Of a stretch of 64,000 nucleotides of DNA, positions 1,578 through 45,725 are shown piece after piece (within the stretch, counting starts at the first letter, position 1; each line of letters starts with the position of its first letter). The translations under genes and the position numbers were made by a program. The stretch spans positions 2,232,001 to 2,296,000 of the forward strand of contig NZ_JAPEOB010000001.1 in NCBI RefSeq assembly GCF_026341775.1. Reading direction: 5' to 3'. The notes beneath the pieces were generated by a model. The model worked only from the letters and a program-made list of their open reading frames with translations. It was not told the DNA's origin and searched no databases. Source of the stretch: Streptomyces sp. NBC_00654. Lineage in GTDB: Bacteria > Actinomycetota > Actinomycetes > Streptomycetales > Streptomycetaceae.

Positions 1578-3137
1578 GTGTTCGATACTCTCTCCGACCG
1601 CCTTAGCGCGACTTTCAAGAACCTCAGGGGCAAGGGCCGCTTGTCCGAGGCGGACATCGACGCCACGGCCCGCGAGATCCGTATCGCGCTCCTCGAAGCC
1701 GATGTGGCCCTGCCGGTCGTGCGCGCGTTCATCGCCAACGTCAAGGAGCGGGCGCGCGGCGTCGAGGTCTCCCAGGCGCTGAACCCCGCCCAGCAGATGA
1801 TCAAGATCGTCAACGAGGAGCTCGTCGGCATCCTCGGCGGCGAGACCCGGCGCATGCGGTTCGCCAAGACCGCGCCCACCGTGATCATGCTCGCGGGCCT
1901 CCAGGGTGCCGGTAAGACCACCCTCGCCGGAAAGCTCGGCCTCTGGCTCAAGGGCCAGGGCCACTCCCCGCTGCTGGTCGCCTGTGACCTCCAGCGCCCC
2001 AACGCCGTCAACCAGCTCAGTGTCGTCGCCGACCGCGCCGGTGTCGCGGTGTACGCCCCGGAGCCGGGCAACGGCGTCGGTGACCCGGTCCAGGTCGCCA
2101 AGGACTCGATCGAGTTCGCCCGCTCCAAGCAGTACGACGTCGTCGTCGTCGACACCGCGGGCCGCCTCGGTATCGACCAGGAGCTGATGCGGCAGGCCGC
2201 GGACATCCGCGACGCCGTCAGCCCGGACGAGATCCTCTTCGTCGTCGACGCGATGATCGGCCAGGACGCGGTGAACACCGCCGAGGCCTTCCGCGACGGC
2301 GTCGGCTTCGACGGCGTGGTGCTCTCCAAGCTCGACGGCGACGCGCGCGGTGGCGCGGCCCTGTCGATCGCCCATGTCACGGGCAAGCAGATCATGTTCG
2401 CGTCGAACGGCGAGAAGCTCGAGGACTTCGACGCCTTCCACCCGGACCGCATGGCCTCCCGCATCCTCGACATGGGTGACCTGCTCACCCTGATCGAGCA
2501 GGCGGAGAAGACGTTCAGTCAGGAAGAGGCCGCCAAAATGGCCTCCAAGCTGGCGTCGAGCAAGGGCAAGGACTTCACGCTCGACGACTTCCTGGCCCAG
2601 ATGGAGCAGGTCCGGAAGATGGGCTCCATCTCCAAGCTGCTCGGGATGCTGCCCGGCATGGGGCAGATCAAGGACCAGATCAACAACATCGACGAGCGCG
2701 ACGTGGACCGTACCGCGGCGATCATCAAGTCGATGACCCCGAAGGAACGCGCCGAGCCGACGATCATCAACGGCTCGCGCCGGGCCCGTATCGCCAAGGG
2801 CTCGGGCGTCGAGGTCTCCGCCGTGAAGAGTCTGGTGGAGCGCTTCTTCGAGGCCCGCAAGATGATGTCGAAGATGGCCCAGGGCGGTGGCATGCCCGGG
2901 ATGCCGGGGATGCCGGGCATGGGCGGCGGTCCCGGCCGTCAGAAGAAGCAGGTCAAGCAGGCCAAGGGTAAGCGCAAGAGCGGCAACCCCATGAAGCGCA
3001 AGGCCGAGGAGCAGGCCGAGGCGGCCCGGCGCGAGCAGGCGGCGCAGGGCGGCGCGTTCGGACTGCCGGCCGGTCAGGGCGGCAAGCCCGCCGAGGACTT
3101 CGCCCTCCCGGACGAGTTCAAGAAGTTCATGGGCTGA
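1578..3137 (+). CDS. ffh: Signal recognition particle protein Ffh
   Basis: Ffh is the GTPase of the signal recognition particle. It binds 4.5S RNA and hydrophobic signal sequences and docks with FtsY at the membrane. The 519 residues show the N-domain helices (LSDRLSATFKNLRGKGRL), the P-loop GLQGAGKTT near 107-115, DTAGR near 192, TKLDGDARGG-type motif SKLDGDARGG, and a Met-rich M domain ending in MPGMPGMPGMG near 440. A basic, Ala-rich tail follows, longer than in E. coli but normal for actinomycetes. The ATG start gives the canonical MFDTLSDRL N-terminus. The gene is monocistronic between two hairpins. Confidence 0.98.
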   Translation: MFDTLSDRLSATFKNLRGKGRLSEADIDATAREIRIALLEADVALPVVRAFIANVKERARGVEVSQALNPAQQMIKIVNEELVGILGGETRRMRFAKTAPTVIMLAGLQGAGKTTLAGKLGLWLKGQGHSPLLVACDLQRPNAVNQLSVVADRAGVAVYAPEPGNGVGDPVQVAKDSIEFARSKQYDVVVVDTAGRLGIDQELMRQAADIRDAVSPDEILFVVDAMIGQDAVNTAEAFRDGVGFDGVVLSKLDGDARGGAALSIAHVTGKQIMFASNGEKLEDFDAFHPDRMASRILDMGDLLTLIEQAEKTFSQEEAAKMASKLASSKGKDFTLDDFLAQMEQVRKMGSISKLLGMLPGMGQIKDQINNIDERDVDRTAAIIKSMTPKERAEPTIINGSRRARIAKGSGVEVSAVKSLVERFFEARKMMSKMAQGGGMPGMPGMPGMGGGPGRQKKQVKQAKGKRKSGNPMKRKAEEQAEAARREQAAQGGAFGLPAGQGGKPAEDFALPDEFKKFMG

Positions 3138-3153
3138 CGGCCGACGGACCACG

Positions 3154-3189
3154 CGTAAGGGGCGCCCACCATGGTGGGCGCCCCTTACG
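3154..3189. terminator. Perfect 36-bp palindrome, probable bidirectional terminator
   Basis: Bases 3154-3171 and 3172-3189 are exact reverse complements (18 bp each). The palindrome lies between the convergent ends of ffh (+) and the yhfW-like gene (-), starting 16 bp after the ffh stop. It can form the same hairpin in either direction. Confidence 0.75.
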
Positions 3190-3212: not shown

Positions 3213-4454
3213 TCAGGCCGCGTGCCGCCCCGGGCGCAGCGCCCGGCCGTTGGCCAGGCCCGCCGGGTCCAGTGACAGCGACACGGCGGCGGTCGCGCCC
3301 ACGTCCGCCAGGCTGTCCGCGTCCGGCAGCAGTTCCACCGCGCCCGCGCCGGGCCGGTGGACGAGGACGGGGACGTACTCACGGGTGTGGAAGGCGTGCC
3401 CGACCGTCGGGTCGTTGCCGTGGTCACCGGTCACGATGAGGCGGTCGCCGGGGCTGTCGAGCAGGGCGACGAGCGCGGCCAGGCCCGCGTCGACCTGCTC
3501 CAGGAGACGTCCGTACCGCTCGGTGTCCTGCTGGTGCCCGGCCAGGTCCGTCTCCTGGACGTTGGCGACCACCAGAGCGTCGCCCGGGGCGCGTACCGCT
3601 TCGAGGGTGTACGTGAACACGTCCGCGGTCCCCACTGCGGGGTGCCGTACCGCCGCGTCGCAGGCCAGGATGTCGGCGGCCTTCCCCACCAGGGTGACGG
3701 GGATGCCCGCGCGGGCGGCCAGATCGGGGAGCTGGCGGGTGTGGTCGAGCCGGGCGCCCAGGTGCTGCACTTCGAGGCCGCCGTTGCGGTAGAAGCCGGT
3801 GGCGGGGGTGTCGAGGCCGACCGTGCCCGCCTCCCCGTCGCGGACGAAGCGCGGCAGCGGGCTGTCCGCATGGCCGCCGACCGCGATGACCCGGGCCACC
3901 GGGGCGACGGTGCGTACCGTACGGGCGATGGCGAGGATGCCGTCCGGTCCGTCGAACGGCAGGTCCTCCAGCCGGCCGGAGGCGTTCCAGTTGATCCCCG
4001 GGTCGGCCTCCAGGTTGTCGTGGACCAGAACGGCCCCGTCGACGACCAGGAGCGGCTTGCCCTCCAGCGGCTCGACGCGGTGTCCGGCCGCTTCGAGGAC
4101 GGCGGTCACCTCCCCGATGTGATCCGCGAGCCGGGCCACGGTGACGCGGCTGAAGTCGGCGCCCATCATCGTCTGGTGGCCGGCGAAGGTGTCGGCGCCC
4201 GGATAGCCGAGGGCGGCCCGGCCCGCGGCGACGGGCAGACGCGTCCGGCGGGCGAGGTCCGGGTGCGGGTGGACGAGGCCGAGGCCGAGCGCGCCCAGCA
4301 CCGGCAGCCGCAGCGGGCGGCCGAAGGCCTCGCGGCAGTGGTCCAGGACATGTCCGCAGGTGTCGGCGGTGAGATCGCCGGGGCGCAGTGTGCCCGCGTC
4401 GGGCATGGCGCCGATGCCGAATCCGTCGATGACGACGATGACGGTCTTGGCCAT
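3213..4454 (-). CDS. yhfW: YhfW-like phosphopentomutase-family metalloenzyme
   Basis: This 413-residue protein belongs to the phosphopentomutase/alkaline phosphatase superfamily. Typical metal-site motifs are present: VIVVIDGFGIGAMPDA at the N-terminus, TADTCGH, and VTGDHGNDPTVGHAFHTRE near the C-terminus, which supplies Asp and His ligands. Phosphopentomutases move phosphate between C1 and C5 of pentoses, but YhfW is a separate branch whose substrate I cannot name. It is the last gene of the minus-strand yhf-like operon, 11 bp after yhfX. The ATG at 4454 gives MAKTVIVVIDG. Longer upstream open frames only read into yhfX and were rejected. A housekeeping DeoB is possible but less likely, given the neighbours. 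Confidence 0.85.
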   Translation of the reverse strand: MAKTVIVVIDGFGIGAMPDAGTLRPGDLTADTCGHVLDHCREAFGRPLRLPVLGALGLGLVHPHPDLARRTRLPVAAGRAALGYPGADTFAGHQTMMGADFSRVTVARLADHIGEVTAVLEAAGHRVEPLEGKPLLVVDGAVLVHDNLEADPGINWNASGRLEDLPFDGPDGILAIARTVRTVAPVARVIAVGGHADSPLPRFVRDGEAGTVGLDTPATGFYRNGGLEVQHLGARLDHTRQLPDLAARAGIPVTLVGKAADILACDAAVRHPAVGTADVFTYTLEAVRAPGDALVVANVQETDLAGHQQDTERYGRLLEQVDAGLAALVALLDSPGDRLIVTGDHGNDPTVGHAFHTREYVPVLVHRPGAGAVELLPDADSLADVGATAAVSLSLDPAGLANGRALRPGRHAA

Positions 4455-4465
4455 GGGATGCCTCC

Positions 4466-5632
4466 TCAGCTCAGGGCCCGGCCCTGGGCGTCGTACAGAC
4501 CGATCCGGCGAGGGCCCCCGGAGGAGAGTCCGGAGACGACGGCGACGGTCGAGCGGGTGACGAAGATCTGGGTACGGAAGGCGAGCAGCGCGGTGTCGCC
4601 GAGCCGGACGTCCTGCCCGGCGGCGGGCGCGTCGAGCAGCCGGTAGTAATCGATGTTCTCGGCGGGCGCGTCCTGTACGCCCAGGCGTGCGCCGGTGCGC
4701 GGCAGCAGTGCGCTCTTGATGTGGGAGCGGGCGTAGAACCCGCCGCCGAAGAGCGCGGGACGGCCGTCGTCCAGCGTGTGGGCGACCTCGCTGACGTACA
4801 CATAGGCGGGGGTCTCCGGCTGCGCCGGGTCGAGCGCGTGCAGCGGAGTGGTGCCGGTCAGGGCATGGCCCGGTTCGCCGTGGGTGGCGCCGAGTCCGGC
4901 GAGCAGCGGGAGGGAGGCCATCGAGGTGGCGCTCGGGGCACTCAGCTTGAGGTCCTCGTGCCCGCGGGAGGCGAGGAGCTCTCGGGCCTTGAGCGCGAGC
5001 GCGAAGTTGGGTGTGGCGTACGGGACCCCGGTCACCGGATCGCACAGGACGCACGGGAAGGCGGTGACGCCCGCGATCCGGATACCGGGCAGCCGTTCGG
5101 CGGCCTCCGCGAACGCGTCCAGCCGGGCGAGCGGGACACCGCCCTCCTGGCCCGGGTAGACGGTGCCCTCGGCGCCTTCGAGGCGGACGAGGACGTCCTG
5201 GACGAAGCCCAGCCCCGTGGCCGCTTCGGAGACCGCGCGGGCGTTGTCCAGGTCGTAGACGGTGACGGTCCCGGGCCGCCAGGCCAGCATCCCGGGCAGC
5301 GCGCGGCGGGGGATCTGGACGAGGTGGCCGAGGTTGCCCGCGCGGGCGCCCGCGGCGTGCAGGGTGCGGGCCTCGGGCGCGTCGATCGCGGCGTACTCGG
5401 GGATGTGCCGGGCGACGGCGGCGATCAGCTCCGGGTTGCGGCCGAGCTGCTTGACGACGAACCAGAGCGAGAGGCCGAGCCGTTCGGCCTCGGCGGCCAG
5501 GAGCGCGGCGTTGGCCTCCACCGCGTCGAGGTCCATGACATAGGTGTCGGGCGGGATCGCGCCGTCGCGGTGGAGGGCCGCCGCGGTCTCGACGAGCCCG
5601 GGGTTGCGGGTGAGGAGGGTGTCGAGGAACAC
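4466..5632 (-). CDS. yhfX: YhfX-like PLP enzyme, alanine-racemase fold
   Basis: The 388-residue protein resembles fold-type III PLP enzymes (alanine racemase N-terminal barrel). The presumed PLP lysine is in WFVVKQLGRNPE, a stretch diagnostic of YhfX. GNLGHLVQIP, SAPSATSMAS, GATHGEPGHALTGTTP and RTQIFVTRS are other conserved blocks. The family is annotated as an amino-acid racemase or similar, and no reaction is known to me. I chose GTG at 5632, two bases after the yhfS stop, because it gives MFLDTLLTRNPGL, the usual N-terminus. The frame stays open further upstream inside yhfS without homology. It sits between yhfS and yhfW in the operon. Confidence 0.87.
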   Translation of the reverse strand: MFLDTLLTRNPGLVETAAALHRDGAIPPDTYVMDLDAVEANAALLAAEAERLGLSLWFVVKQLGRNPELIAAVARHIPEYAAIDAPEARTLHAAGARAGNLGHLVQIPRRALPGMLAWRPGTVTVYDLDNARAVSEAATGLGFVQDVLVRLEGAEGTVYPGQEGGVPLARLDAFAEAAERLPGIRIAGVTAFPCVLCDPVTGVPYATPNFALALKARELLASRGHEDLKLSAPSATSMASLPLLAGLGATHGEPGHALTGTTPLHALDPAQPETPAYVYVSEVAHTLDDGRPALFGGGFYARSHIKSALLPRTGARLGVQDAPAENIDYYRLLDAPAAGQDVRLGDTALLAFRTQIFVTRSTVAVVSGLSSGGPRRIGLYDAQGRALS

Positions 5633-5634
5633 GG

Positions 5635-6750
5635 TCAGTCGTCCTTCGGGTCGTTCAGGGTGTCCAGCGAACGGCGCAGGATCTCGATCACGAGATCCGC
5701 GCCCGCCCGCATCGGGTTGATGCGCACGGTCCAGTCGGCCAGCTCGGGGGAGTCGTCCAGCGCGGAGCTGGACATCCGGTAGAAGAGCGGGGCGATCTCG
5801 TAGCGCGAGTTGGAGCCGACGGGGTACGGGGCCGCGCCGAACCGGGCGGCGACGGCGGGCAGCTCCTTGGCCACCGGCCGGTCGAGGCGGACCAGCAGGC
5901 ACCGGTCCTGGGCGTTGGCGAGCCGCACCTCGGCGACCCCGGCCACCTCGCCGGCCGCCAGCCGGTCCGCGACCTCGGCGCCGACCTGCGACTGTACGGA
6001 CCACATGACCGGTACGTGGGTGAGCGCGCGCAGCGCGTCGAGTGCCTGGTGGCCCTGGACCTGGCCGCCGCCGGAGTAGTTGTCGCGCCGGACGCGCTCG
6101 ACCAGGTCCCGGGCGCCGACGACGATCCCGACCCCCTCCGGGCCGTGCAGCTTGAACAGCGAGAAGCAGGAGGCGTCCGCGCCCAGCTCCACCCCGGCGG
6201 CGGGGGTGCGCATGACGGCGTAGTTGTCGTCGACGATCGTGCGGACACCGGCCGCCCGGCAGGCCGCCAGGACCGCGCCGGGGTCGTAGGAGTCGGCGAG
6301 CCGCTGGCGGGTGTGCTGGACGTAGGCCCAGCGGAACCGGCCCGACTCCAGCGCCGCGCGCAGCTCGTCGGGGTCGTTGAAGTCGGCCTCGACGGTCTGT
6401 ACGCCGATGCCGCGCAGGGTCACCTCGGTGGTGCGGTAGACGGGCGCGCGGTGGATCAGCAGCGGGTCGCCCGCCCGCACGGCGGCGTTCAGGGCGGCCC
6501 GGATCGCCCCCGTGCCGGCGCCCTGGACGAAGGCGGCGTCCTCGGCGCCGAAGAAGTCGGCGAGGACGGCTTCGACACGGGCGGTGGTGCGGGGGCGGCC
6601 GAGACCGGGGACGACCCCGGCGTCGGAGGCGAAGAGCTGCGGGCCCTCGAAGTGCCGGGCGGTGGCCTCGATCAGCCGGAACTGCCGGGCGACGGCGTCG
6701 GACAGCTCCACCGTCGGCAGCGGGAACGTCTCGGGGAGTACGGGACTCAT
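5635..6750 (-). CDS. yhfS: YhfS-like PLP-dependent aminotransferase/lyase
   Basis: This 371-residue protein is a fold-type I PLP enzyme. FFGAEDAAFVQGAGTGAIRAAL forms the cofactor phosphate region, TIVDDNYAV carries the ring-binding Asp, and FSLFKLHGPEGVG carries the probable Schiff-base Lys. It is distantly related to cystathionine gamma-synthase-type enzymes, and YhfS itself has no established reaction that I know of. Its start is two bases after the php stop and its end is two bases before yhfX, so it is probably translationally coupled. With YhfX it gives the operon two different PLP enzymes, which suggests an amino compound as substrate. Confidence 0.87.
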   Translation of the reverse strand: MSPVLPETFPLPTVELSDAVARQFRLIEATARHFEGPQLFASDAGVVPGLGRPRTTARVEAVLADFFGAEDAAFVQGAGTGAIRAALNAAVRAGDPLLIHRAPVYRTTEVTLRGIGVQTVEADFNDPDELRAALESGRFRWAYVQHTRQRLADSYDPGAVLAACRAAGVRTIVDDNYAVMRTPAAGVELGADASCFSLFKLHGPEGVGIVVGARDLVERVRRDNYSGGGQVQGHQALDALRALTHVPVMWSVQSQVGAEVADRLAAGEVAGVAEVRLANAQDRCLLVRLDRPVAKELPAVAARFGAAPYPVGSNSRYEIAPLFYRMSSSALDDSPELADWTVRINPMRAGADLVIEILRRSLDTLNDPKDD

Positions 6751-6752
6751 GG

Positions 6753-7718
6753 TCAGATCTCCTCCACGCTCGCGCCGGTGAGGAAGCGCAGCGGGTTGCG
6801 GCGGGTCATCAGGTCGATCAGGTCCTCGTCCACACCGGCCGCCCGGACCTTGGGCAGAAAGCCGCGGAAGAGGTGCCCGTAGCCCTGGCCGCCCTCGGTG
6901 GTCAGATAGCCGTGGCGGGAGATGTCGCAGCTGAGCAGTGCCCGGTCGGCGTGTCCGGCCTCCAGGAGGGCGAGCAGCAGCCGCAGCCGGGTGTCGTCGC
7001 TCTGGTAGCCGTCCTTGCCGACCGTGTCGAAGGCGACGTACGCGCCGCTCGCCGCCAGCTCCTTGTGCACCGCCGGGTCGTCGAGCAGGTCCTGGTGGCC
7101 GATGCTGATCCGGTGCGGCTCCAGGCCCTCGGCGGTGAGCAGGTCCAGCTGGGCGAGGCCGCCGCGGCCGAGCTGCGCGTGGGTGGCCACGGAGAGCCCG
7201 GTGGCGACGGCGGCCCGCGCACTGGCGCGCAGCACCTTGGTCTCGGGCGCCGTCGGGATGTCGCCGTGGCTGCCGATCTCGCCGAGGACGCCGGGCCGGA
7301 TGCCGGTGGCGCCGATCCCGCCGTTGATCTCGCGGACGAGGGTGCCGGTGAGCTGTTCGACGCTGCTGTCGTCGATCTCGGGGGTGTGGAACGGCTCGTA
7401 GTACCAGCCGGTCGCGGCGACGACGGCGACCTGGGAGTCCCGGGCGATCCGGGCCAGGGTGCGCACATCGCGGCCCATGCCGCGGCAGGTCAGCTCGACG
7501 ACCAGGGACAGCCCGAACTCCTCGCGGAGTCCGGCCAGCTCCGCGGTGACGGCGGCGGCGTGCCGCTCGGGGGTGAGGACGGCGGCGCCGTCGCCCCGGT
7601 GGTCCAGGTCCAGGACCAGGTGTTCGTGGGCGAGGGCGGGGCCGCGTACGGAACCGGGGGCGAGGTCTCCGAGGACGGTACGGAGAACGGGGGCGGGTCG
7701 GGGGGTGGCGCTGTTCAT
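6753..7718 (-). CDS. php: Php/YhfV-like phosphotriesterase-homology amidohydrolase
   Basis: The 321 residues form an amidohydrolase TIM barrel of the phosphotriesterase family. Metal ligands expected from the family are visible: HEH in LAHEHLVLDL, Glu in LGEIGSHGD (E. coli Php also has Glu where phosphotriesterase has a carboxylated Lys), His in VATHAQLGRG, His in ISIGHQDL, and Asp in LLSCDISR. Family members include lactonases and phosphotriesterases. The enzyme probably opens a lactone or cleaves an ester in the yhf pathway, but this is inference. It lies between yhfT (46 bp gap) and yhfS (2 bp). Confidence 0.9.
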   Translation of the reverse strand: MNSATPRPAPVLRTVLGDLAPGSVRGPALAHEHLVLDLDHRGDGAAVLTPERHAAAVTAELAGLREEFGLSLVVELTCRGMGRDVRTLARIARDSQVAVVAATGWYYEPFHTPEIDDSSVEQLTGTLVREINGGIGATGIRPGVLGEIGSHGDIPTAPETKVLRASARAAVATGLSVATHAQLGRGGLAQLDLLTAEGLEPHRISIGHQDLLDDPAVHKELAASGAYVAFDTVGKDGYQSDDTRLRLLLALLEAGHADRALLSCDISRHGYLTTEGGQGYGHLFRGFLPKVRAAGVDEDLIDLMTRRNPLRFLTGASVEEI

Positions 7719-7764
7719 CGTGGGGGTCCTTCCTGGCGGTGGCGTACCTGATCCGGACCGGGCG

Positions 7765-9099
7765 TCAGCCCTTGACCGGGGTGAACAGATCGAGCCAGTA
7801 CAGGAGGTTGAGGAGGACGCCGCCGACGATCACGGCCGCCGGTGCCGCGGCCATCCGGACGATCGGCCGGCCCATCGCCTCGTTCAGCAGGTAGAGCCCG
7901 CCGACCACGAGGATGCCGAGCCCGCCGCCCATCGCGTTGGCGGCCATCAGCGAACCGAAGAGGATCGCCAGCTGGAGGGTGTCGCTGATCGCGCTGCGCA
8001 GGTGCTCCGAGGAGTCGCGGACGCTGGGCAGCTTGCCGAGGAGCTTGCCGATGTAGGAGAGGGCCAGCACCTCGATGGCGAAGACGAGGGCGCCGACGAT
8101 CGCGGCGACGAACGGGTTCGGCAGCAGGTAGCCGATGGGGTACACGAGGGTGAAGCCGGCGATGCCGTACGCGCCGGAGGCCAGCGCGGTCGTCGCGATC
8201 AGCGGGATGAACCCGAAGACCCGGTAGAAGTCGACCTGGGCGGCTTCGGCGTACTGCCCCTTGGCGATCAGGAAGCTGGTCGCCTCGCCGCCGCCGAATA
8301 TGTGCATCTGGGCGAGCACACAGACCCCGGCCCCCAGCACCATGAACAGGGGGAGGTACTTGCGCAGCCGTGCCGCGCTGGCGCTGAAGAGCGAGGCCAT
8401 CGGATCGTCGTCGAGGACGACCTCGGTGACGCCCGCCGCCTTGTCGGCCCTGCGCTGCCCCAGGTCCTTGGCGACGGCGAGGCCGATGAGCATCAGCACG
8501 CCGACGGCCATCGCGAGGGCTCCGGCGAACATGTTCGGCCAGAGCTTCATGGTCATGACGACCAGGGCGAATTCCAGGACACCGGCGATGCCGCCCCACT
8601 TGCGGCCGAACTGCTTGGTGATGGCCAGCACCGGGAAGAGCGTGAAGAGGAAGAGGATCGGCGTCGACATCTGCTGCATCGCCGTGATGAAGTCGACCGG
8701 CAGGTCGTGCGCCACATTGTTGGCGCCGTTCAGCCCGAAGACGACGACCGCGCCCCAGGCCCCGCCGAGGATCGGCGCGAGCCACTTCTTCGGCGACAGC
8801 ATGCCGAGGATGTCCGTGGGCAGGAAGAGGAGCCACGGGTTCAGCACACCGGTGGAGAGGGCCATCGGCGCGCCGAGTCCGAAGATGAACCCGGCCGAGA
8901 GACCGAAAGAGACCGCCGTCGTGGCGCTGCGGGTGGTGCGCCCCTGGATGAAGTCCAGGAGGAACGGTCGTACGCCGTCGTTGAAGACGGCCAGCGCCAT
9001 GTGCGAGATGTACGCGGTCAGCGCACAGAGGGCTATCACGGTCAGCTGCTGCGCCAGCGAGAAATCGAGGCCGGCGCCGGCTGCGAGTGTGGTACTCAC
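7765..9099 (-). CDS. yhfT: YhfT-like integral membrane protein, probable transporter
   Basis: The 444-residue, highly hydrophobic protein has about 10-12 predicted membrane segments. Its N-terminus (YISHMALAVFNDGVRPF) and FGLGAPMALSTGVLNPW are typical of the YhfT family. A soluble loop around residues 215-245 carries charged residues. It is presumed to import the pathway's substrate, since it is the only permease in the cluster. The coding order YhfU-YhfT resembles a split carrier with a small soluble partner. GTG at 9099 is the start. No substrate can be assigned from sequence. Confidence 0.85.
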   Translation of the reverse strand: MSTTLAAGAGLDFSLAQQLTVIALCALTAYISHMALAVFNDGVRPFLLDFIQGRTTRSATTAVSFGLSAGFIFGLGAPMALSTGVLNPWLLFLPTDILGMLSPKKWLAPILGGAWGAVVVFGLNGANNVAHDLPVDFITAMQQMSTPILFLFTLFPVLAITKQFGRKWGGIAGVLEFALVVMTMKLWPNMFAGALAMAVGVLMLIGLAVAKDLGQRRADKAAGVTEVVLDDDPMASLFSASAARLRKYLPLFMVLGAGVCVLAQMHIFGGGEATSFLIAKGQYAEAAQVDFYRVFGFIPLIATTALASGAYGIAGFTLVYPIGYLLPNPFVAAIVGALVFAIEVLALSYIGKLLGKLPSVRDSSEHLRSAISDTLQLAILFGSLMAANAMGGGLGILVVGGLYLLNEAMGRPIVRMAAAPAAVIVGGVLLNLLYWLDLFTPVKG

Positions 9100-9145
9100 G
9101 GGGTCACTCCTTCGTGCCCGGGATGATCAAGAAAAGTGGCTGGGG

Positions 9146-9502
9146 TCAGCCGCGGGCGGCGATGGCGCGCGCCATGAGGGGAGCGATGGTGTCGATCTGG
9201 TCCATCGAGAAGCCGAAGACCTTTTTGCCCTCGGCGAGCAGGGCGGTGATCTGCTCCTCGGTGGGGACGCTGCGGCCGAAGGTGTGGCAGGCGGCGTTGC
9301 CCATCAGACCCACGAGCACGCCGAGCGAGGCACCGGCCCCGGTGTGGCAGGTGCCCAGGTAGTAGTCGGCCTGCCCCACGCGGAGCTTCATCGCGGCGTC
9401 CATGTCGCTGGAGGCGACGACGTCGATGCCGTCGATGCCCAGCTTCTTGATGGTGTCGGTGACCTCGATCTTGCCGACGCCGCCGGTGAGGATCTTCGTC
9501 AT
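9146..9502 (-). CDS. yhfU: YhfU-like small protein (DUF2620)
   Basis: This 118-residue cytosolic protein begins MTKILTGGVGKIEV and contains YYLGTCHTGAGASLG. It is an alpha/beta protein rich in Gly and matches the DUF2620/YhfU family. No catalytic residues can be named. There are cysteines in GTCHTG and in AACHTFG. The size and the position just before a large permease recall PTS IIB subunits, but that is a comparison of layout only. It lies 63 bp after yhfY and 46 bp before yhfT. Confidence 0.82.
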   Translation of the reverse strand: MTKILTGGVGKIEVTDTIKKLGIDGIDVVASSDMDAAMKLRVGQADYYLGTCHTGAGASLGVLVGLMGNAACHTFGRSVPTEEQITALLAEGKKVFGFSMDQIDTIAPLMARAIAARG

Positions 9503-9565
9503 GGCTGTCCTTCTTCCGTGGGGTGCTGCGGCCGGGGGACGGTCCCGGCCGGGGGAGCGGGTGGG

Positions 9566-9952
9566 TCAGGGGGCGGGGGTGGCGGGGGACTGCTGGGCCA
9601 GGACCGCCAGGTGCATGCCGAGGAAATTGACCTCGGACTCCGGCAGCGCGGCGCCGAGGTCCCGCTCGGCGCGCGCGGAGACGGCGCGGGCGCGGGCCAC
9701 GGCGTCGGGGTGCCCGGCCAGTTCCGCGGCGACCTGGTCGTCGGTGAGGAACTGCTCGATGGGCTCGCCGTTCAGGAGCCTGGTGAGCGCCATCATCAGA
9801 TGACTGGTGAGCATGCCCGCGGTCGCTTCGGTGACGGTGCGGCCGTCCGCTTCGAGGGCGGCCAGCTCGGCGGCGACGAAGTCGGCCACTTCGGGCCTGA
9901 CCTGTCCGCCTTCACGGAAGAGCTGGATCCGCAGAGCGAGCTGGTCGTCCAT
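9566..9952 (-). CDS. yhfY: YhfY-like single PRD-domain protein
   Basis: The 128 residues resemble a lone PTS-regulation domain, the all-helical module normally phosphorylated on histidines by PTS proteins. Visible features are the central SHLMMALTRLLNGEPIE and the C-terminal FLGMHLAVLA, each with a conserved-type His. No DNA-binding domain is attached. An excellent ribosome site (AGGAGG, 9959-9964) fixes the ATG at 9952. It is the first gene of the main yhf operon, directly downstream of one copy of the duplicated promoter element. It may relay phosphorylation or ligand state to YhfZ, but that is speculation. Confidence 0.75.
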   Translation of the reverse strand: MDDQLALRIQLFREGGQVRPEVADFVAAELAALEADGRTVTEATAGMLTSHLMMALTRLLNGEPIEQFLTDDQVAAELAGHPDAVARARAVSARAERDLGAALPESEVNFLGMHLAVLAQQSPATPAP

Positions 9953-9970
9953 GGTGATCCTCCTAAAATC

Positions 9971-9996
9971 AACAATAACCAGGATTTTGTATTTTG
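9971..9996 (-). promoter_or_regulatory. Promoter/operator element A upstream of yhfY
   Basis: This AT-rich 26-bp block matches element B upstream of yhfZ at 21 of 26 positions in the same orientation. Read on the minus strand it ends with TATTGT (9977-9972), a plausible -10 box. The -35 region is weak (CCTTCA). Transcription would start at about 9965, just ahead of the yhfY ribosome site. Sharing with element B suggests common control, most simply by YhfZ. Confidence 0.6.
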
Positions 9997-10003
9997 AAGG
10001 TGG

Positions 10004-10031
10004 CGAAGGTCCCCCGGTTTCAGGACCTTCG
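10004..10031 (-). terminator. Hairpin between yhfZ and yhfY
   Basis: Perfect 9-bp arms (10004-10012 and 10023-10031) flank a 10-nt loop, 36 bp after the yhfZ stop on the minus strand and just upstream of element A. It would end yhfZ transcripts so that yhfY onward depends on its own promoter. Confidence 0.6.
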
Positions 10032-10066
10032 GCCCCCGCCCCGCCGGAGCCCGGCAGGACGGTCCG

Positions 10067-11005
10067 TCAGTACGAGGGCACGCGCTCGCCCCTGAGTACT
10101 TCGTTCTGGAGCGAGGTGATCAGGGAGAGGTCGAGCGAGTCCCGGACGGCGGCCAGGGCCTTCGTCCCGTCGGTCCGGCCGATGATGGCCGCGCTGGAGT
10201 TGCGCAGGGCCAGTTCACGGGTGACCTCGTCGCCCAGCGGGAGCACATCGACGCCGAGCCCGACCCGGTCCTGTGCCTCGTCGAGGTTCCACACGGTGGC
10301 GTCGACCTCGTCGCGGGCGAAGAGATCGCGCAGCTGCATGTACGAGGCCTCGCGCCACAGGACGTCCTCGCGCCCGGCGAAGACCCGCTCGACGAGCATC
10401 CGCAGGTCCTCCGACGCATGGTCGACCGCGACCCGCAGGCCGGGGGCGTCGAGGTCGACGCCACGGCGTACGAGCATGCCGTGCGCGCCGACATAGGTGG
10501 CCGGGCCCAGATCGGCGACGAGCTCCACCGGGTGCTCGGAGATCAGCTGGTCGGCCGCGAAGCGGGACAGGACGACGAGGTCGACCTTTCCTTCGAGCAG
10601 CGCGGCGGTACGGGCTCCGGCGCCACGCATGAACGTGATCGCGAAGGGGGCGCCGGCCTCCTCGAAGGCGCTGCGCAGCCCGGTCGCCAGACCCTCGTAC
10701 CGCCGGGAGTACGGCAGGGGCATCGCGGCGAGCAGTGTCCCGAGGCCGGAGAGCCGCCACAGTATGGAGCGGTCCGAGCGGACGAGGAAGGTGCCGAGGT
10801 GCCCCCGGGCGGTCGTCTCGATGGCGCCCGATTCCTCCAGGAGCTGCAACGCGGCCTGGACCGTGCCGTTGCCGCAGCCCAGCTCCTGGGCGTAGTCGCG
10901 AACGCGGGGCAGCCGGGTGTCCGGCTCGTGGTTGAGCAGCAGAACCGCGAGCTGCCGGGCGGCGAGGCCGTTTCGCGTGAGGAATCGGTCATCGAAAGCG
11001 TTCAC
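10067..11005 (-). CDS. yhfZ: YhfZ-like transcriptional regulator (GntR-like HTH plus ligand domain)
   Basis: This 312-residue regulator has an N-terminal winged-helix region (RLPRVRDYAQELGCGNGTVQ, residues ~30-50) and a periplasmic-binding-protein-like sensor domain. MPLPYSRRYEGLATGL, GPATYVGAHGMLVRRG and the terminal EXXPSY-like ending are family hallmarks. GTG at 11005 gives a protein close to the ~300 residues of E. coli YhfZ; the open frame further upstream has no homology. No ribosome site is visible. A TTGCCA-17-TACTGT promoter would start the mRNA at or within a base of the GTG, so the message is probably leaderless. It probably controls the downstream operon through elements A and B. 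Confidence 0.85.
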   Translation of the reverse strand: MNAFDDRFLTRNGLAARQLAVLLLNHEPDTRLPRVRDYAQELGCGNGTVQAALQLLEESGAIETTARGHLGTFLVRSDRSILWRLSGLGTLLAAMPLPYSRRYEGLATGLRSAFEEAGAPFAITFMRGAGARTAALLEGKVDLVVLSRFAADQLISEHPVELVADLGPATYVGAHGMLVRRGVDLDAPGLRVAVDHASEDLRMLVERVFAGREDVLWREASYMQLRDLFARDEVDATVWNLDEAQDRVGLGVDVLPLGDEVTRELALRNSSAAIIGRTDGTKALAAVRDSLDLSLITSLQNEVLRGERVPSY

Positions 11006-11011
11006 GAAACG

Positions 11012-11041
11012 AACAGTAAACAGGATTCTGGATATTGGCAA
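11012..11041 (-). promoter_or_regulatory. Promoter/operator element B upstream of yhfZ
   Basis: The 26-bp shared block is 11012-11037. On the minus strand TTGCCA (11041-11036) and TACTGT (11018-11013) are separated by exactly 17 bp, close to the sigma-70-type consensus. The predicted start point falls on or within a base of the GTG codon of yhfZ at 11005. The conserved bases include the spacer, which suggests an operator overlapping the promoter. Confidence 0.65.
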
Positions 11042-11210
11042 GGAGTTCACCCGGGGGGCGTGGTGGGCCACGGGGTGGCGTCCGTCGCCCCGCCGCCCCC
11101 ACCGCGACCCGCCATGTCCCTCCATGGGGCCACTGGGGCGCCCCTCCAGAGGCTTTGGTGTGATTTCTCCCCTAATGTCGCCATCAGTGGCCGTCGGCAG
11201 AGGAGCACGA

Positions 11211-13142
11211 GTGACCAACCCCGTACCTCCGCGCGATCGGACGGACCAGCCATGGCGCTCCGAGGGCGCGCCCCCGCCCCAGCCGCCCGGCCGCAAGATG
11301 CCCGGCGGCTGGGGCGGGCTGCTCCTGACCGCTCTGGCCGTCTATCTGATCGCCAACCTGGTGCTGTCCTTCTTCAACGGTGACGACGAGCCGACCATCG
11401 CGTACACCGAATTCAGCAAGCAGGTCACCGCGGGCAACGTCTCCAAGATCTACTCCAAGGGCGACGCGATCCAGGGGCAGCTCAAGAAGGAGACCAAGGT
11501 CCCAGGCAAGGACGACAAGTACACCAAGTTCACCACCCAGCGGCCCGCCTTCGCCGACGACGACCTCTGGGCCGAGCTGACCGAGGACGATGTCACCGTC
11601 ACCGCCGAACCGGTCGTCCAGCAGCGCAGTTTCCTGGCCAACCTGCTGATCTCGCTCGCCCCGATGCTGCTGCTCGTCCTGCTCTGGGTCGTCATCGCCC
11701 GGCGGATGCGCGGCGGGCTCGGCGGCGGCATGGGCGGACTCGGACGCAAGCCCCCGCCCAAGCCGGTCGAACTCGAAGGGCGCAAGCGCACCACCTTCGA
11801 GGACGTGGCCGGGATCGACGAGGTCGAGGGCGAGCTCAACGATGTCGTCGACTTCCTCAAGAACCCCCAGGAGTACGCGAAGATGGGCGCCCGGATGCCC
11901 GGCGGTGTCCTTCTCGCCGGTCCGCCCGGCACCGGCAAGACGCTCCTGGCCCGAGCCGTGGCGGGCGAGGCCGGGGTGCCGTTCTTCTCCGCGTCCGCCT
12001 CCGAGTTCATCGAGATGATCGTGGGCGTCGGGGCCGGCCGGGTGCGTGAACTCTTCGCCGAGGCCCGCAAGGTCGCCCCCGCCATCATCTTCATCGACGA
12101 GATCGACACCATCGGCCGGGCGCGCGGCGGCGGCTCCGGCATGGGCGGCCACGACGAGCGCGAACAGACCCTCAATCAGATCCTCACCGAGATGGACGGC
12201 TTCTCCGGCTCCGAAGGCGTCGTCGTGCTCGCCGCCACCAACCGCGCCGACGTCCTGGACCCCGCCCTCACCCGGCCCGGCCGCTTCGACCGGATCGTGC
12301 AGGTCAGCCCGCCGGACAAGGGCGGCCGGGAGGCGATTCTCAGGATCCACACCCGGCAGATCCCGCTCGCCGGGGACGTCAACCTGGCCCAGGTCGCCCG
12401 GATCACCCCCGGCATGACGGGCGCCGACCTCGCCAATCTGGCCAACGAGGCCGCCCTGCTCGCCGTCAAACGCAAGCAGACCGAGGTCAGCCAGTCCGAC
12501 CTGTCCGACGCCCTGGAGAAGGTCCAGCTCGGTGCCGAGCGTCCGCTCGTCATGCCCGACGAGGAGCGCCGCAGGACCGCCTACCACGAGAGCGGCCACG
12601 CGCTCCTCGGCATGCTCCAGCCCGGCGCCGACCCGGTGCGCAAGATCACCATCGTGCCGCGCGGGCGCGCCCTCGGCGTCACCCTCTCGACCCCGGACAT
12701 CGACAAGTACGCGTACACCGAGGAGTATCTGCGCGGCCGGATCATCGGCGCCCTCGGCGGGATGGCGGCCGAACACGTGGTGTACGACGTGATCACCACC
12801 GGTGCGGAGAGCGACCTGGAACAGGTCACCTCCCTGGCCCGCGGCATGGTCGGCCGCTGGGGCATGAGCGACAGGATCGGCCGTCTCACCGCCATCCCCG
12901 CCGACGCCCAGCAGGCCTACGGCCTCTCCGCGGCGCCCGCCACCCTCGACGCCGTCGACGCCGAGATGCGCCGCATCGTCGACGAGTGCTACGAGGACGC
13001 CTGCCGTCTCCTGCGCGAGAACCGCGACAAGCTCGACTCACTGGCCGAGGCGCTGATGGCGAATGAGACCCTGGACGAGGCGGCGGCCTACCGGGCGGCC
13101 GGCGTCACCCGGCTGGACAAGCCGGACGGCGGCGCCTCCTGA
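11211..13142 (+). CDS. ftsH: FtsH-type ATP-dependent zinc metalloprotease
   Basis: The 643-residue membrane AAA protease degrades misfolded or regulatory membrane proteins. Two membrane segments flank an extracytoplasmic domain (about residues 33-55 and 142-164). The AAA module has Walker A GPPGTGKT (~238-245), Walker B IIFIDEID and an SRH region ending RPGRFDR. The protease has HESGH at 459-463 and the downstream Asp ligand in [11 protein letters not shown] at 11211 is chosen because GAGGAG lies 6 bp upstream. An in-frame ATG at 11175 has no such site. Streptomycetes commonly carry a second FtsH near folE, so this may be a paralogue. It is divergent from yhfZ across 205 bp. Confidence 0.93.
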
Positions 13143-13248
13143 CGGTGTGCCGGTGGCGGGGCCGGGGCGCGTGCGCGTCCTGCGCGTGCCGTCCCGGTGC
13201 GTGCCGGCCGCCCCGTTCACCGGACGGCCGGGGTTCTCCTGGGGCGGG

Positions 13249-14142
13249 TCAGACCAGGCACACGAGATAGCGGAACACGTTCGGCATCCATACGGTGCCG
13301 TCCGGCCGCTGATACGGACGCAGCGCCCGAGCCACTTCCTTCTCCACCGGGGCGCGGTCCGCGGCCCGCGCCGCCGTGTCGAACAGGCCGGTCGACAGCA
13401 GCCCGCGCACCGCGCTGTCCAGGTCCGCGTACCCGAACGGACATGACACCCGGCCGGAGCCGTCCGGCCTCAGTCCGGCCCGCGCGGCCACCTCCTCCAG
13501 ATCGTCCCGCCGGGCGGCCCGCCAGCTGTCCGCCCGCCCGCCGCGCTCCGGACCGGAACCGGCCGGCCGTGACGCCACCCGCAGCACCGCGGCGGTGGCG
13601 CACCGCTCGGGCGGACCCCAGCCGGTCAGCACCACGGCGGCCCCCCGCGCCGCCAGCGGTACGGCGGACTCCAGTGCGGGGGCGAGCCCCTCGGAGTCAC
13701 CGGCCACGCACCCGATCGGGTGGAACGCGGTGATCAGGTTGTACGGTCCACCCTCCGCCGGGGGCGCCGCCGCGGGTCCGCCCACGGCCAGCCGGGCCGC
13801 AGGCTCCGCCGCCGGACCGCCGGGCGGCCCGGCCGGGTGCCCCGGATCGGGCAGCAGTCGCTCGCGGGCCAGCGCGAGCCGTTCCCGGTCGGTGTCGACG
13901 CCGGTGACCCGCGCCCCCCGGGACGCGGCGATCAGCAGGGCGAGCCCGGAGCCGCAGCCGAGGGAGAACAGCCGTGTGGCGGCCCCGACCTCCAGCCGTT
14001 CGTACACCGCCTCGTACAGCGGCGCCAGCATCCGCTCCTGGATCTCGGCCCAGTCACGGGCACGGGTGCCGGCGTCCACCGGGAGGGACGGATCGGCGTA
14101 CGGATCCGTGTACCGGTGATGCCGGACGAGCGTTGGTGTCAT
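13249..14142 (-). CDS. Class I SAM-dependent methyltransferase
   Basis: The 297-residue protein has motif I LFSLGCGSGLALLIAASRGA and an acidic second strand (VTGVDTDRERLALA), the Rossmann signature of SAM methyltransferases. A Pro/Ala/Gly-rich insertion around residues 125-150 separates it from the next conserved strand (YNLITAFHPIG). The C-terminal third has no recognisable specificity motif, so the substrate is unknown. It is a stand-alone gene, convergent with ftsH and divergent from the SprT-like gene across a long spacer. ATG at 14142 gives MTPTLVRHHRYTDPY; the open frame upstream lacks a ribosome site. Confidence 0.75.
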   Translation of the reverse strand: MTPTLVRHHRYTDPYADPSLPVDAGTRARDWAEIQERMLAPLYEAVYERLEVGAATRLFSLGCGSGLALLIAASRGARVTGVDTDRERLALARERLLPDPGHPAGPPGGPAAEPAARLAVGGPAAAPPAEGGPYNLITAFHPIGCVAGDSEGLAPALESAVPLAARGAAVVLTGWGPPERCATAAVLRVASRPAGSGPERGGRADSWRAARRDDLEEVAARAGLRPDGSGRVSCPFGYADLDSAVRGLLSTGLFDTAARAADRAPVEKEVARALRPYQRPDGTVWMPNVFRYLVCLV

Positions 14143-44363: not shown

Positions 44364-45725
44364 TCAGAGCTTTGTCCAGGCCTCCGTCAGGACGCCCCGC
44401 AGGATGCCCTCGATCTCGTCGAACGTCGACTGGTCGGAGATCAGCGGCGGCGCGAGCTGCACGACCGGGTCGCCGCGGTCGTCCGCCCGGCAGTAGAGGC
44501 CGTTCTCGTACAGCGCCTTGGAGAGGAAGCCGTACAGGACGCGCTCGGTCTCCTCGTCGGTGAAGGTCTCCTTGGTGACCTTGTCCTTCACCAGCTCGAT
44601 GCCGTAGAAGAAGCCGTTGCCGCGGACGTCGCCGACGATCGGCAGGTCGTGCAGCTTCTGCAGCGTCGTGAGGAACGCGTTCTCGTTGTCGAGGACGTGC
44701 TTGTTGAGGCCCTCGCGCTCGAAGATGTCCAGGTTGGCGAGGCCGACCGCGGCGGAGACCGGGTGGCCGCCGAAGGTGTAGCCGTGCAGGAAGGTGTTGC
44801 CGCCCCGGTAGAACGGCTCCGCGATCCGGTCCGAGACGATGCATGCTCCTATCGGGGAGTACCCGGAGGTCATGCCCTTGGCGCAGGTGATCATGTCCGG
44901 CACATAGCCGAACTTGTCGCAGGCGAACATCGTGCCCAGGCGGCCGAAGGCGCAGATGACCTCGTCGGAGACGAGCAGCACGTCGTACTGGTCGCAGATC
45001 TCGCGGACCCGCTGGAAGTACCCGGGCGGCGGCGGGAAACAGCCGCCGGCGTTCTGCACCGGCTCCAGGAAGACCGCGGCGACGGTCTCCGGGCCCTCGA
45101 AGAGGATCTCCTGCTCGATCTGGTCGGCGGCCCAGCGGCCGAAGGCCTCCGGGTCGTCGCCGAAGAGCGGGGCGCGGTAGATGTTGGTGTTCGGCACCTT
45201 GTGGGCGCCGGGGACCAGCGGCTCGAAGGGGGCCTTCAGGGCCGGCAGCCCGGTGATCGACAGGGCGCCCTGCGGGGTGCCGTGGTAGGCGACCGCGCGT
45301 GAGATGACCTTGTACTTGGTCGGCTTGCCCTGGAGCTTGAAGTACTGCTTGGCCAGCTTCCAGGCGGTCTCGACGGCCTCGCCGCCGCCGGTGGTGAAGA
45401 AGACCTTGTTGAGGTCGCCGGGCGCGTAGTCCGCCAGTCGCTCGGCCAGTTCGACGGCCTTCGGGTGGGCGTAGGACCACACCGGGAAGAAGGCCAGCTC
45501 CTGCGCCTGCTTGTACGCCGTCTCGGCCAGCTCACGGCGGCCGTGGCCGGCGTTGACGACGAACAGGCCGGAGAGGCCGTCGAGGTACCGCTTGCCCTGG
45601 TCGTCGTAGATGTAGGTGCCCTCACCCCGCACGATGGTGGGAACGGGGGCGTTCTCGTAGTCCGACATGCGGGTGAAGTGCATCCACAGGTGGTCGTACG
45701 CGGTTCGGCTGAGGTCCTTGCTCAC
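44364..45725 (-). CDS. Class III PLP aminotransferase, probable polyamine (SpuC/PatA-type)
   Basis: The 453-residue class III aminotransferase has TTGGGEAVETAWKLA (PLP phosphate site), AYHGTPQGALSITG, LLVSDEVICAFGRLG and the Schiff-base lysine in ITCAKGMTSGYSPIG. Such enzymes convert putrescine-like amines, beta-alanine or similar omega-amines. The neighbouring aldehyde dehydrogenase and polyamine transporter genes favour putrescine or gamma-glutamyl derivatives. GTG at 45725 lies 2 bp after the Lrp stop; GTG at 45743 is the alternative. It is the second gene of the lrp-aminotransferase operon. Confidence 0.87.
   Translation of the reverse strand: MSKDLSRTAYDHLWMHFTRMSDYENAPVPTIVRGEGTYIYDDQGKRYLDGLSGLFVVNAGHGRRELAETAYKQAQELAFFPVWSYAHPKAVELAERLADYAPGDLNKVFFTTGGGEAVETAWKLAKQYFKLQGKPTKYKVISRAVAYHGTPQGALSITGLPALKAPFEPLVPGAHKVPNTNIYRAPLFGDDPEAFGRWAADQIEQEILFEGPETVAAVFLEPVQNAGGCFPPPPGYFQRVREICDQYDVLLVSDEVICAFGRLGTMFACDKFGYVPDMITCAKGMTSGYSPIGACIVSDRIAEPFYRGGNTFLHGYTFGGHPVSAAVGLANLDIFEREGLNKHVLDNENAFLTTLQKLHDLPIVGDVRGNGFFYGIELVKDKVTKETFTDEETERVLYGFLSKALYENGLYCRADDRGDPVVQLAPPLISDQSTFDEIEGILRGVLTEAWTKL

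What the first reader, a model, noticed from the sequence alone, without database searches (positions are those of the whole stretch)
3213..11005. Complete yhf-type gene cluster in a streptomycete
Eight minus-strand genes correspond one-to-one to the enterobacterial yhf locus: yhfZ, yhfY, yhfU, yhfT, php, yhfS, yhfX and yhfW. Here the order is rearranged, with the regulator and PRD gene first and yhfW last. The pathway has a likely carrier, a lactonase or phosphotriesterase homologue, two different PLP enzymes and a phosphopentomutase-like enzyme. I infer breakdown of an aminated, phosphorylated or lactone-containing compound. The substrate is not known to me for any organism.
Basis: partly seen in the sequence, partly recalled or inferred. 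Interest (0 to 1): 0.8.

Follow-up and report, generated by a model that had tools for sequence, protein, structure and literature searches.

The report
Orphan yhf operon in Streptomyces
An eight-gene operon of unknown purpose, known from E. coli, sits complete in this Streptomyces chromosome; comparison with distant relatives suggests it imports and breaks down an aminated sugar-like compound with help from the cell's sugar-phosphorylation relay (PTS).

Summary
Confirmed. Window 3213-11005 (minus strand) holds homologues of all eight E. coli yhf genes (29-47% identity) with catalytic residues intact. The order Z-Y-U-T-php-S-X-W is not a local rearrangement: 80 related loci (70 Streptomyces) and a Cetobacterium plasmid share it as far as each is complete; E. 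coli differs. In 34 of 80 loci it lies between ffh and the ftsH/rpsP side. New here: (1) three genomes with divergent clusters encode HPr and enzyme I with the cluster, near the PRD gene yhfY. These three lack PF02378 EIIC permeases; eight genomes with ordinary clusters have them (Fisher p=0.006; small, hand-picked sample). (2) YhfU models as an RpiB-like sugar-phosphate-isomerase fold with an invariant Cys. (3) A probable YhfZ operator occurs twice in the window, before yhfZ and yhfY, and recurs in Streptomyces relatives. (4) Relatives place yhf genes near SIS deaminase-like, aminotransferase, aldolase and ABC-transport genes. Best reading: PTS-linked uptake and catabolism of an aminated sugar-type compound. 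The substrate is unproven; whether the link is transport or regulation is open. No functional paper turned up in the searches made.

The parts
10067..11005 (-). yhfZ: GntR-type regulator with YhfZ_C domain
   Evidence: PF14503 2.7e-55, PF14502 5.6e-14; NF041241 340.8/260 bits; 35% to E. coli YhfZ
9566..9952 (-). yhfY: stand-alone PRD protein, phospho-acceptor candidate (His51, His114)
   Evidence: PF00874 23.4/23 bits; H51 invariant in 9 of 9 divergent members, second His in 6 of 9; both >=98% in 72 members
9146..9502 (-). yhfU: DUF2620, RpiB/LacAB-like predicted fold, invariant Cys52
7765..9099 (-). yhfT: polytopic membrane protein, presumed permease
   Evidence: PF10797 1.4e-153; model pLDDT 84.1, mostly helical; no convincing PDB fold match
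6753..7718 (-). php: phosphotriesterase-family metal hydrolase
   Evidence: PF02126 3.7e-64; H31, H33, E147, H180, H208, D265 conserved; E. coli Php solved, 1bf6/4lef
5635..6750 (-). yhfS: fold-type I PLP enzyme
   Evidence: PF22475 2.4e-42; 47% to E. coli YhfS, solved as 4j8l; K200 conserved
4466..5632 (-). yhfX: alanine-racemase-like PLP enzyme
   Evidence: PF21279 1.7e-24, PF01168 4e-14; 4kbx; K61 conserved
3213..4454 (-). yhfW: phosphopentomutase-like enzyme
   Evidence: NF009049 443.9/254 bits; D10, D303, H307, D344, H345, H356 shared with E. coli DeoB
11012..11033 (-). probable YhfZ operator 1, just upstream of yhfZ
   Evidence: 16/16 match to AATCCTGKTTAYTGTT; >=13/16 upstream of yhfZ in 54 of 66 sequences with a called yhfZ, window included; background 2 of 4000 pieces away from the sites, 5 of 1000 pieces drawn anywhere; coordinates
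9971..9992 (-). probable YhfZ operator 2, in the yhfZ-yhfY gap
   Evidence: 16/16 match; >=13/16 upstream of yhfY in 39 of 74 sequences, window included; coordinates
3155..3188 (.). perfect 34-bp palindrome between convergent yhfW and ffh, bidirectional-terminator candidate
   Evidence: termination is inferred

Best explanation
The eight genes are one inducible uptake-and-degradation operon. Shown: eight intact genes in a widely conserved order, and two copies of a recurring motif before yhfZ and yhfY. Inferred: YhfZ binds both motifs and responds to a pathway metabolite. YhfT brings in an aminated sugar-like compound. The module YhfY-YhfU-YhfT depends on the PEP phosphorelay (enzyme I to HPr to His51 of YhfY), for the transport/phosphorylation step, its control, or both. 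Php then opens a lactone- or amide-type bond. YhfS and YhfX act on the amino group (elimination/transamination and racemisation/epimerisation). YhfW moves a phosphate so that the product can enter central metabolism. Confidence by layer: conserved uptake/catabolic operon about 0.95; PTS dependence through YhfY about 0.6; aminated sugar-type substrate about 0.5.
For: All families and catalytic residues intact. Conserved order in 80 loci and in Cetobacterium. U, T and php detected in 80 of 80 loci. HPr and enzyme I encoded with the cluster in L094, L115 and L125: HPr is the neighbour of yhfY in L094 and L115; in L125 yhfW and yhfX lie between them. The EIs of L094 and L115 pass TIGR01417 (432.5 and 446.7 against 341.7); that of L125 was not scanned there but matches PF05524. 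The three cluster EIs fall in one clade (support 1.0) away from the other EIs of G068 and G358. In G264 they are the only EI and HPr matches of the genome; in G358 the cluster HPr is the only HPr match. PF02378 EIIC: 0 in those 3 genomes, 1-7 in each of 8 genomes with ordinary clusters (Fisher p 0.006). In 6 YhfX-only loci (read of 14 such plasmid records) no Y, U or T was detected in the fetched 21 kb, so Y and U seem to travel with T. Amino-sugar context: SIS genes in L115, L125, L113, L112; class III aminotransferase in the 3 divergent clusters; KDPG aldolase and SDR beside YhfT in L093 and L124.
Against: Only three divergent clusters with EI/HPr were found. In 80 ordinary loci and the window neither gene was detected in the fetched sequence. 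G068 has two further EIs and two further HPrs, G358 one further EI. One genome with an ordinary cluster, G501, showed no EI (14 of 15 had one). Four ordinary-cluster genomes of the EI search (G089, G252, G134, G346) were not put to the EIIC search. PF02378 and PF00359 do not cover the mannose, ascorbate, galactitol or sorbitol PTS types (recalled); PF00359 was also absent from G000 and G500. The G264 EI reads GARTSHAAI where others read GGxTSHxAI. No YhfY/U/T protein tested matches an EII family. E. coli, Vibrio and Cetobacterium YhfY lack the second PRD histidine. Php, S, X and W have no established substrate.
Confidence: 0.5

Rival explanations
1. The PTS link is purely regulatory: HPr phosphorylates the PRD of YhfY to report energy/carbon status to YhfZ, while YhfT is an ordinary secondary transporter and no phosphate reaches the substrate.
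For: PRD domains are usually regulatory (recalled). YhfY lies next to yhfZ and has its own motif upstream. YhfT showed no EIIC match and YhfU is nearer to RpiB than to EIIB.
Against: Three genomes without PF02378 EIIC keep EI and HPr with the cluster, one as its only pair; a purely regulatory relay has less to sense there. Seven loci with enough flank lack yhfZ and yhfW but keep yhfY.
Confidence: 0.3
2. YhfU is a true sugar-phosphate isomerase of the catabolic pathway, YhfT a plain permease, and EI/HPr co-localisation in three clusters is incidental.
Against: D9, N77, K78 and R83, invariant in 8 RpiB-family sequences, are not kept in YhfU. YhfU was not detected in six YhfX-only loci. EI/HPr accompany all three divergent clusters read.
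Confidence: 0.15
3. The operon salvages a glycated amino acid or sugar-amino acid conjugate (Amadori-like): hydrolase frees the parts, YhfX racemises the amino acid and YhfW handles the sugar phosphate.
For: Embleya YhfX sits with an amino-acid permease, a SIS protein and a gene read by eye as a ROK-type kinase; five alphaproteobacterial YhfX with M20 hydrolase and ABC genes; Cetobacterium adds an amidase-annotated gene; E. coli yhf neighbours frl.
Against: No deglycase or sugar kinase in the window cluster; the frl genes are convergent to yhf in E. coli and were not seen beside the other loci read.
Confidence: 0.2

Closest known systems
E. coli K-12 yhfZYXW-php-yhfUTS operon (b3376-b3383)
   Same: all eight families, one strand, regulator and PRD gene first
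   Different: order of the other six; 29-47% identity; no functional study found there either (searches: listings, plus passages of one paper)
PEP phosphotransferase system, especially stand-alone relays such as DhaM (EIIA-HPr-EI) feeding Dha kinase (recalled)
   Same: three divergent clusters encode EI and HPr with a small His-bearing protein; the sister group of the cluster EIs in my tree includes EIIA-HPr-EI fusions
   Different: the small protein is a PRD, not an EIIA; no EIIB/EIIC family match; no EI/HPr in the window
RpiB/LacA/LacB sugar-phosphate isomerases
   Same: predicted fold, Cys-x-Thr/Ser-Gly loop
   Different: 118 aa against about 150; several RpiB-invariant residues missing; below Pfam cut-off
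EF_0830/SFCGS orphan family (TIGR03577, PF14272)
   Same: two divergent YhfU score against it (E 4.3e-6 and 2.3e-4)
   Different: far below its cut-off (26.9 and 21.3 against 141.1 bits); the window YhfU does not score; its gene neighbourhood (PLP ammonia-lyase, aldolase, amidohydrolase) is recalled, not tested

Membership tests
yhf locus (E. coli type) | homologues of all eight proteins | tested here: met
yhf locus (E. coli type) | contiguous, one strand | tested here: met
yhf locus (E. coli type) | same gene order as E. coli | tested here: not met
   the other order is commoner
yhf locus (E. coli type) | same substrate | not testable with these tools
   no substrate found in the papers searched
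PTS permease (EII complex) | EI and HPr available in the genome | tested here: met
   G000 has one EI and one HPr match
PTS permease (EII complex) | match to a known EIIA, EIIB or EIIC family | tested here: not met
PTS permease (EII complex) | EIIB-like fold of YhfU | tested here: inconclusive
PTS permease (EII complex) | EIIC fold of YhfT | tested here: inconclusive
   no convincing match of any kind
PTS permease (EII complex) | PEP-dependent phosphorylation of substrate | not testable with these tools
   needs biochemistry
RpiB/LacAB isomerases (YhfU) | fold | tested here: met
RpiB/LacAB isomerases (YhfU) | residues D9, N77, K78, R83 (invariant in the 8 RpiB-family sequences aligned) | tested here: not met
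RpiB/LacAB isomerases (YhfU) | PF02502 above cut-off | tested here: not met
   best 13.6 against 24.7 bits, E. coli YhfU
PRD proteins (YhfY) | PF00874 above cut-off and PRD histidines | tested here: met
   23.4/23 bits; H51, H114; marginal score
Phosphopentomutase-like (YhfW) | NF009049 cut-off and metal ligands | tested here: met
Phosphopentomutase DeoB proper | TIGR01696 cut-off | tested here: not met
   117 against 341.2 bits
Phosphotriesterase family (Php) | PF02126 cut-off and metal ligands | tested here: met
   the NCBIfam equivalog NF007373 was not reached (210 against 486)
Alanine-racemase-like PLP enzymes (YhfX) | PF01168 cut-off, conserved Lys | tested here: met
   activity not tested

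The most novel reading that the evidence does not exclude
YhfY, YhfU and YhfT form a previously unrecognised kind of PTS permease: a PRD protein (His51) replaces EIIA, an RpiB-fold protein (Cys52 in a Cys-x-Thr/Ser-Gly-x-Gly loop) replaces EIIB, and YhfT replaces EIIC. In genomes without classical PTS permeases the system carries its own enzyme I and HPr.
Probability: 0.22. Interest if true: 0.85.

Novelty: new variant of a known kind. Interest (0 to 1): 0.58.

Why it matters
The E. coli yhf operon is an orphan although three of its products have solved structures (4j8l, 4kbx, 1bf6/4lef). Linking it to the PTS relay, to a fold for YhfU, to a probable operator and to amino-sugar-type neighbours turns an open question into assays with defined residues and mutants. 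If the strong form is true, the PTS has a permease type built from other parts.

Tried and rejected
Rfam and tRNA scans of the window: nothing. The sigma-70/terminator scan found no promoter at its threshold. The yhfZ-yhfY gap folds better than shuffles (z -3.4); not pursued. Literature: (no hit), seen as listings with the start of abstracts; passages seen only in PMC4448311 (a riboswitch prediction table) and PMC4323659 (one legend). No functional study of the operon seen; judged by title, many hits were B. subtilis or staphylococcal genes of the same names or unrelated. The library lacks most subscription papers.

YhfU as a plain EIIB was considered and set back because RpiB stands well above it. 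No EIIC appeared among the YhfT rows shown, which shows neither presence nor absence. Mobile-island origin: no near match on plasmids and a recurring chromosomal site in 34 of 80 loci, so set back for the window. The window order as a local rearrangement: rejected. Searches for further EI-bearing clusters gave one more YhfT locus (G866, L124), without EI on its 11-kb contig and not searched for EI; it was left out of the 3-against-8 comparison. The plasmid EI hits were not read for context. Two further YhfS genomes (G396, G436) were not read. The stop-to-stop gene orders contain sorting artefacts and were replaced.
Full report
OBSERVATION. Eight minus-strand genes fill 3213-11005, each placed in the expected family and each matching its E. 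coli namesake at 29-47% identity. YhfY is the weakest (29% over 87 residues, E 1.6e-4; PRD 23.4 against a 23-bit cut-off). A gene caller of my own returned the same eight genes between genes that NCBIfam names ffh (1578-3137) and ftsH (11298-13142). The enzymes look functional: at >=98% conservation YhfW (67 sequences) keeps D10, D303, H307, D344, H345 and H356, all shared with E. coli DeoB; Php (86) keeps H31, H33, E147, H180, H208 and D265; YhfS (85) keeps K200 and YhfX (87) K61. The roles of these residues are recalled from the families.

DISTRIBUTION AND ORDER. Each lists the genes it has in the order Z-Y-U-T-php-S-X-W; L037 has an extra yhfT after yhfZ. All eight were found in 59 of 80 by tblastn; U, T and php in 80 of 80; the 21 incomplete ones include contig ends, and diverged genes can be missed, as with yhfY of L084/L085, which is there. 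Seven loci with enough flank lack both Z and W; L072 and L083 keep Y-U-T-php (L072 also Z) without S, X, W. Cetobacterium has the same order plus an amidase-annotated gene. E. coli has Z-Y-X-W-php-U-T-S. YhfT is rare overall: 11 of 296 genomes sampled in the class; YhfS-like_C in 2 of 396 of the phylum and 7 of 201 of the phylum of Thermogemmatispora, own genomes included. In 34 of 80 loci the operon lies between ffh and the ftsH/rpsP side, as in the window.

LINK TO THE PTS. I searched 15 genomes holding yhf genes for EI (14 of 15) and HPr (15 of 15). In three genomes with divergent clusters EI and HPr lie with the cluster: G068 (L094: yhfY-HPr-EI adjacent, YhfU-YhfT about 8 kb away on the contig, two YhfS, class III aminotransferase), G358 (L115: yhfY-HPr-EI adjacent, with U, T, W, X, two YhfS, SDR, aminotransferase, SIS) and G264 (L125: U, Y, W, X, HPr, EI in one run, with php, YhfS, aminotransferase and SIS near; its YhfT is on another contig). 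G264 (95% complete) has no other EI or HPr match; G358 has no other HPr but one more EI; G068 has two more of each. The three HPr keep GLHARPAA. The two EIs scanned pass TIGR01417; the G264 EI reads GARTSHAAI where most others read GGxTSHxAI. A FastTree tree puts the three cluster EIs in one clade with support 1.0, away from the other EIs of G068 and G358; part of that set was chosen from hits to the G264 EI, so only the placement of the three and of the same-genome EIs is informative. PF02378 EIIC: none in G264, G068, G358 (nor G866), at least one in each of G000, G154, G296, G497, G498, G499, G500, G501; Fisher p 0.006 for 3/3 against 0/8. G089, G252, G134 and G346, also with ordinary clusters, were in the EI/HPr search but not in the EIIC search. 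PF00359: none in the three, but also none in G000 and G500. In the 80 ordinary loci and the window no EI or HPr was detected by tblastn with the L125 proteins. The sample is small, the genomes were chosen by me, and other PTS types were not searched.

REGULATION. AATCCTGKTTAYTGTT, drawn from the two window sites, occurs at 16/16 exactly twice in the 64-kb window, upstream of yhfZ and of yhfY; the next best is 12/16. It scores >=13 upstream of yhfZ in 54 of 66 sequences and of yhfY in 39 of 74, window included, against 2 of 4000 pieces away from these sites and 5 of 1000 drawn anywhere. The >=13 hits upstream of yhfZ are in Streptomyces and Actinomadura; L084-L091 score 11-12, with a palindrome like ATCCAG-N4-CTGGAT read by eye. 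Most loci are close relatives, so conservation is partly shared descent. Upstream of yhfZ the site lies between TTGCCA and TACTGT with a 17-bp spacer (read), so repression by YhfZ of a promoter with almost no leader is inferred. E. coli shows a different palindrome there.

SUBSTRATE CLASS. Genes recurring near yhf relatives: SIS genes (L115, best model NagB-II below cut-off, 210 against 430; L125, L113, L112; also 3 of 80 ordinary loci), class III aminotransferase (the 3 divergent clusters, 54-63% alike; in no ordinary locus), KDPG aldolase and SDR by YhfT (L093, L124), cupin glucose-6-phosphate isomerase (L125), ABC genes taken as sugar-type from annotation or by eye, M20 hydrolase (5 of 5 alphaproteobacterial loci read), an amidase-annotated gene (Pfam below cut-off). 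This points to an aminated sugar or sugar acid, not to one compound. Some neighbours may be unrelated.

VERDICT. The finding is real, and the operon is an ordinary member of a widely shared but unexplained kind. The PTS association, the YhfU fold and the operator are what this study adds. I do not file the module as a PTS permease, because no EII family is matched; that it works with the PTS remains the better reading.

Noticed in passing
L099 (Vibrio halioticoli plasmid) 5142-9217: A lactose/cellobiose-type PTS (EIIB, EIIC, EIIA), a DUF7916 protein and a porin lie directly upstream of yhfZ on the same strand; no yhfS was found in that record.
   Followed up: partly
L113 (Embleya) 6892-13698: YhfX with an amino-acid permease, a SIS protein and two genes read by eye as ROK-type regulator and kinase; other yhf genes not detected.
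   Followed up: partly
L072 and L083: Reduced clusters Y-U-T-php (L072 also Z) without yhfS, yhfX and yhfW, suggesting that php belongs most tightly to the transport module.
   Followed up: partly
L058, L065, L069, L071, L074, L075, L079: yhfZ and yhfW are missing together while yhfY to yhfX are kept.
   Followed up: no
window 9953-10066: The yhfZ-yhfY gap folds more stably as RNA than shuffles (z -3.4), with GC-rich hairpins.
   Followed up: no
window 44364-45725: A class III aminotransferase (PRK06541, 837.6 against 574 bits) related to the one in divergent yhf clusters, 33 kb away; link unknown.
   Followed up: no
P0290, P0294, P0302, P0303, P0304: EIs of the cluster clade occur in named Streptomyces, Arthrobacter, Microbispora and Sphaerisporangium records; their neighbourhoods were not seen.
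   Followed up: no
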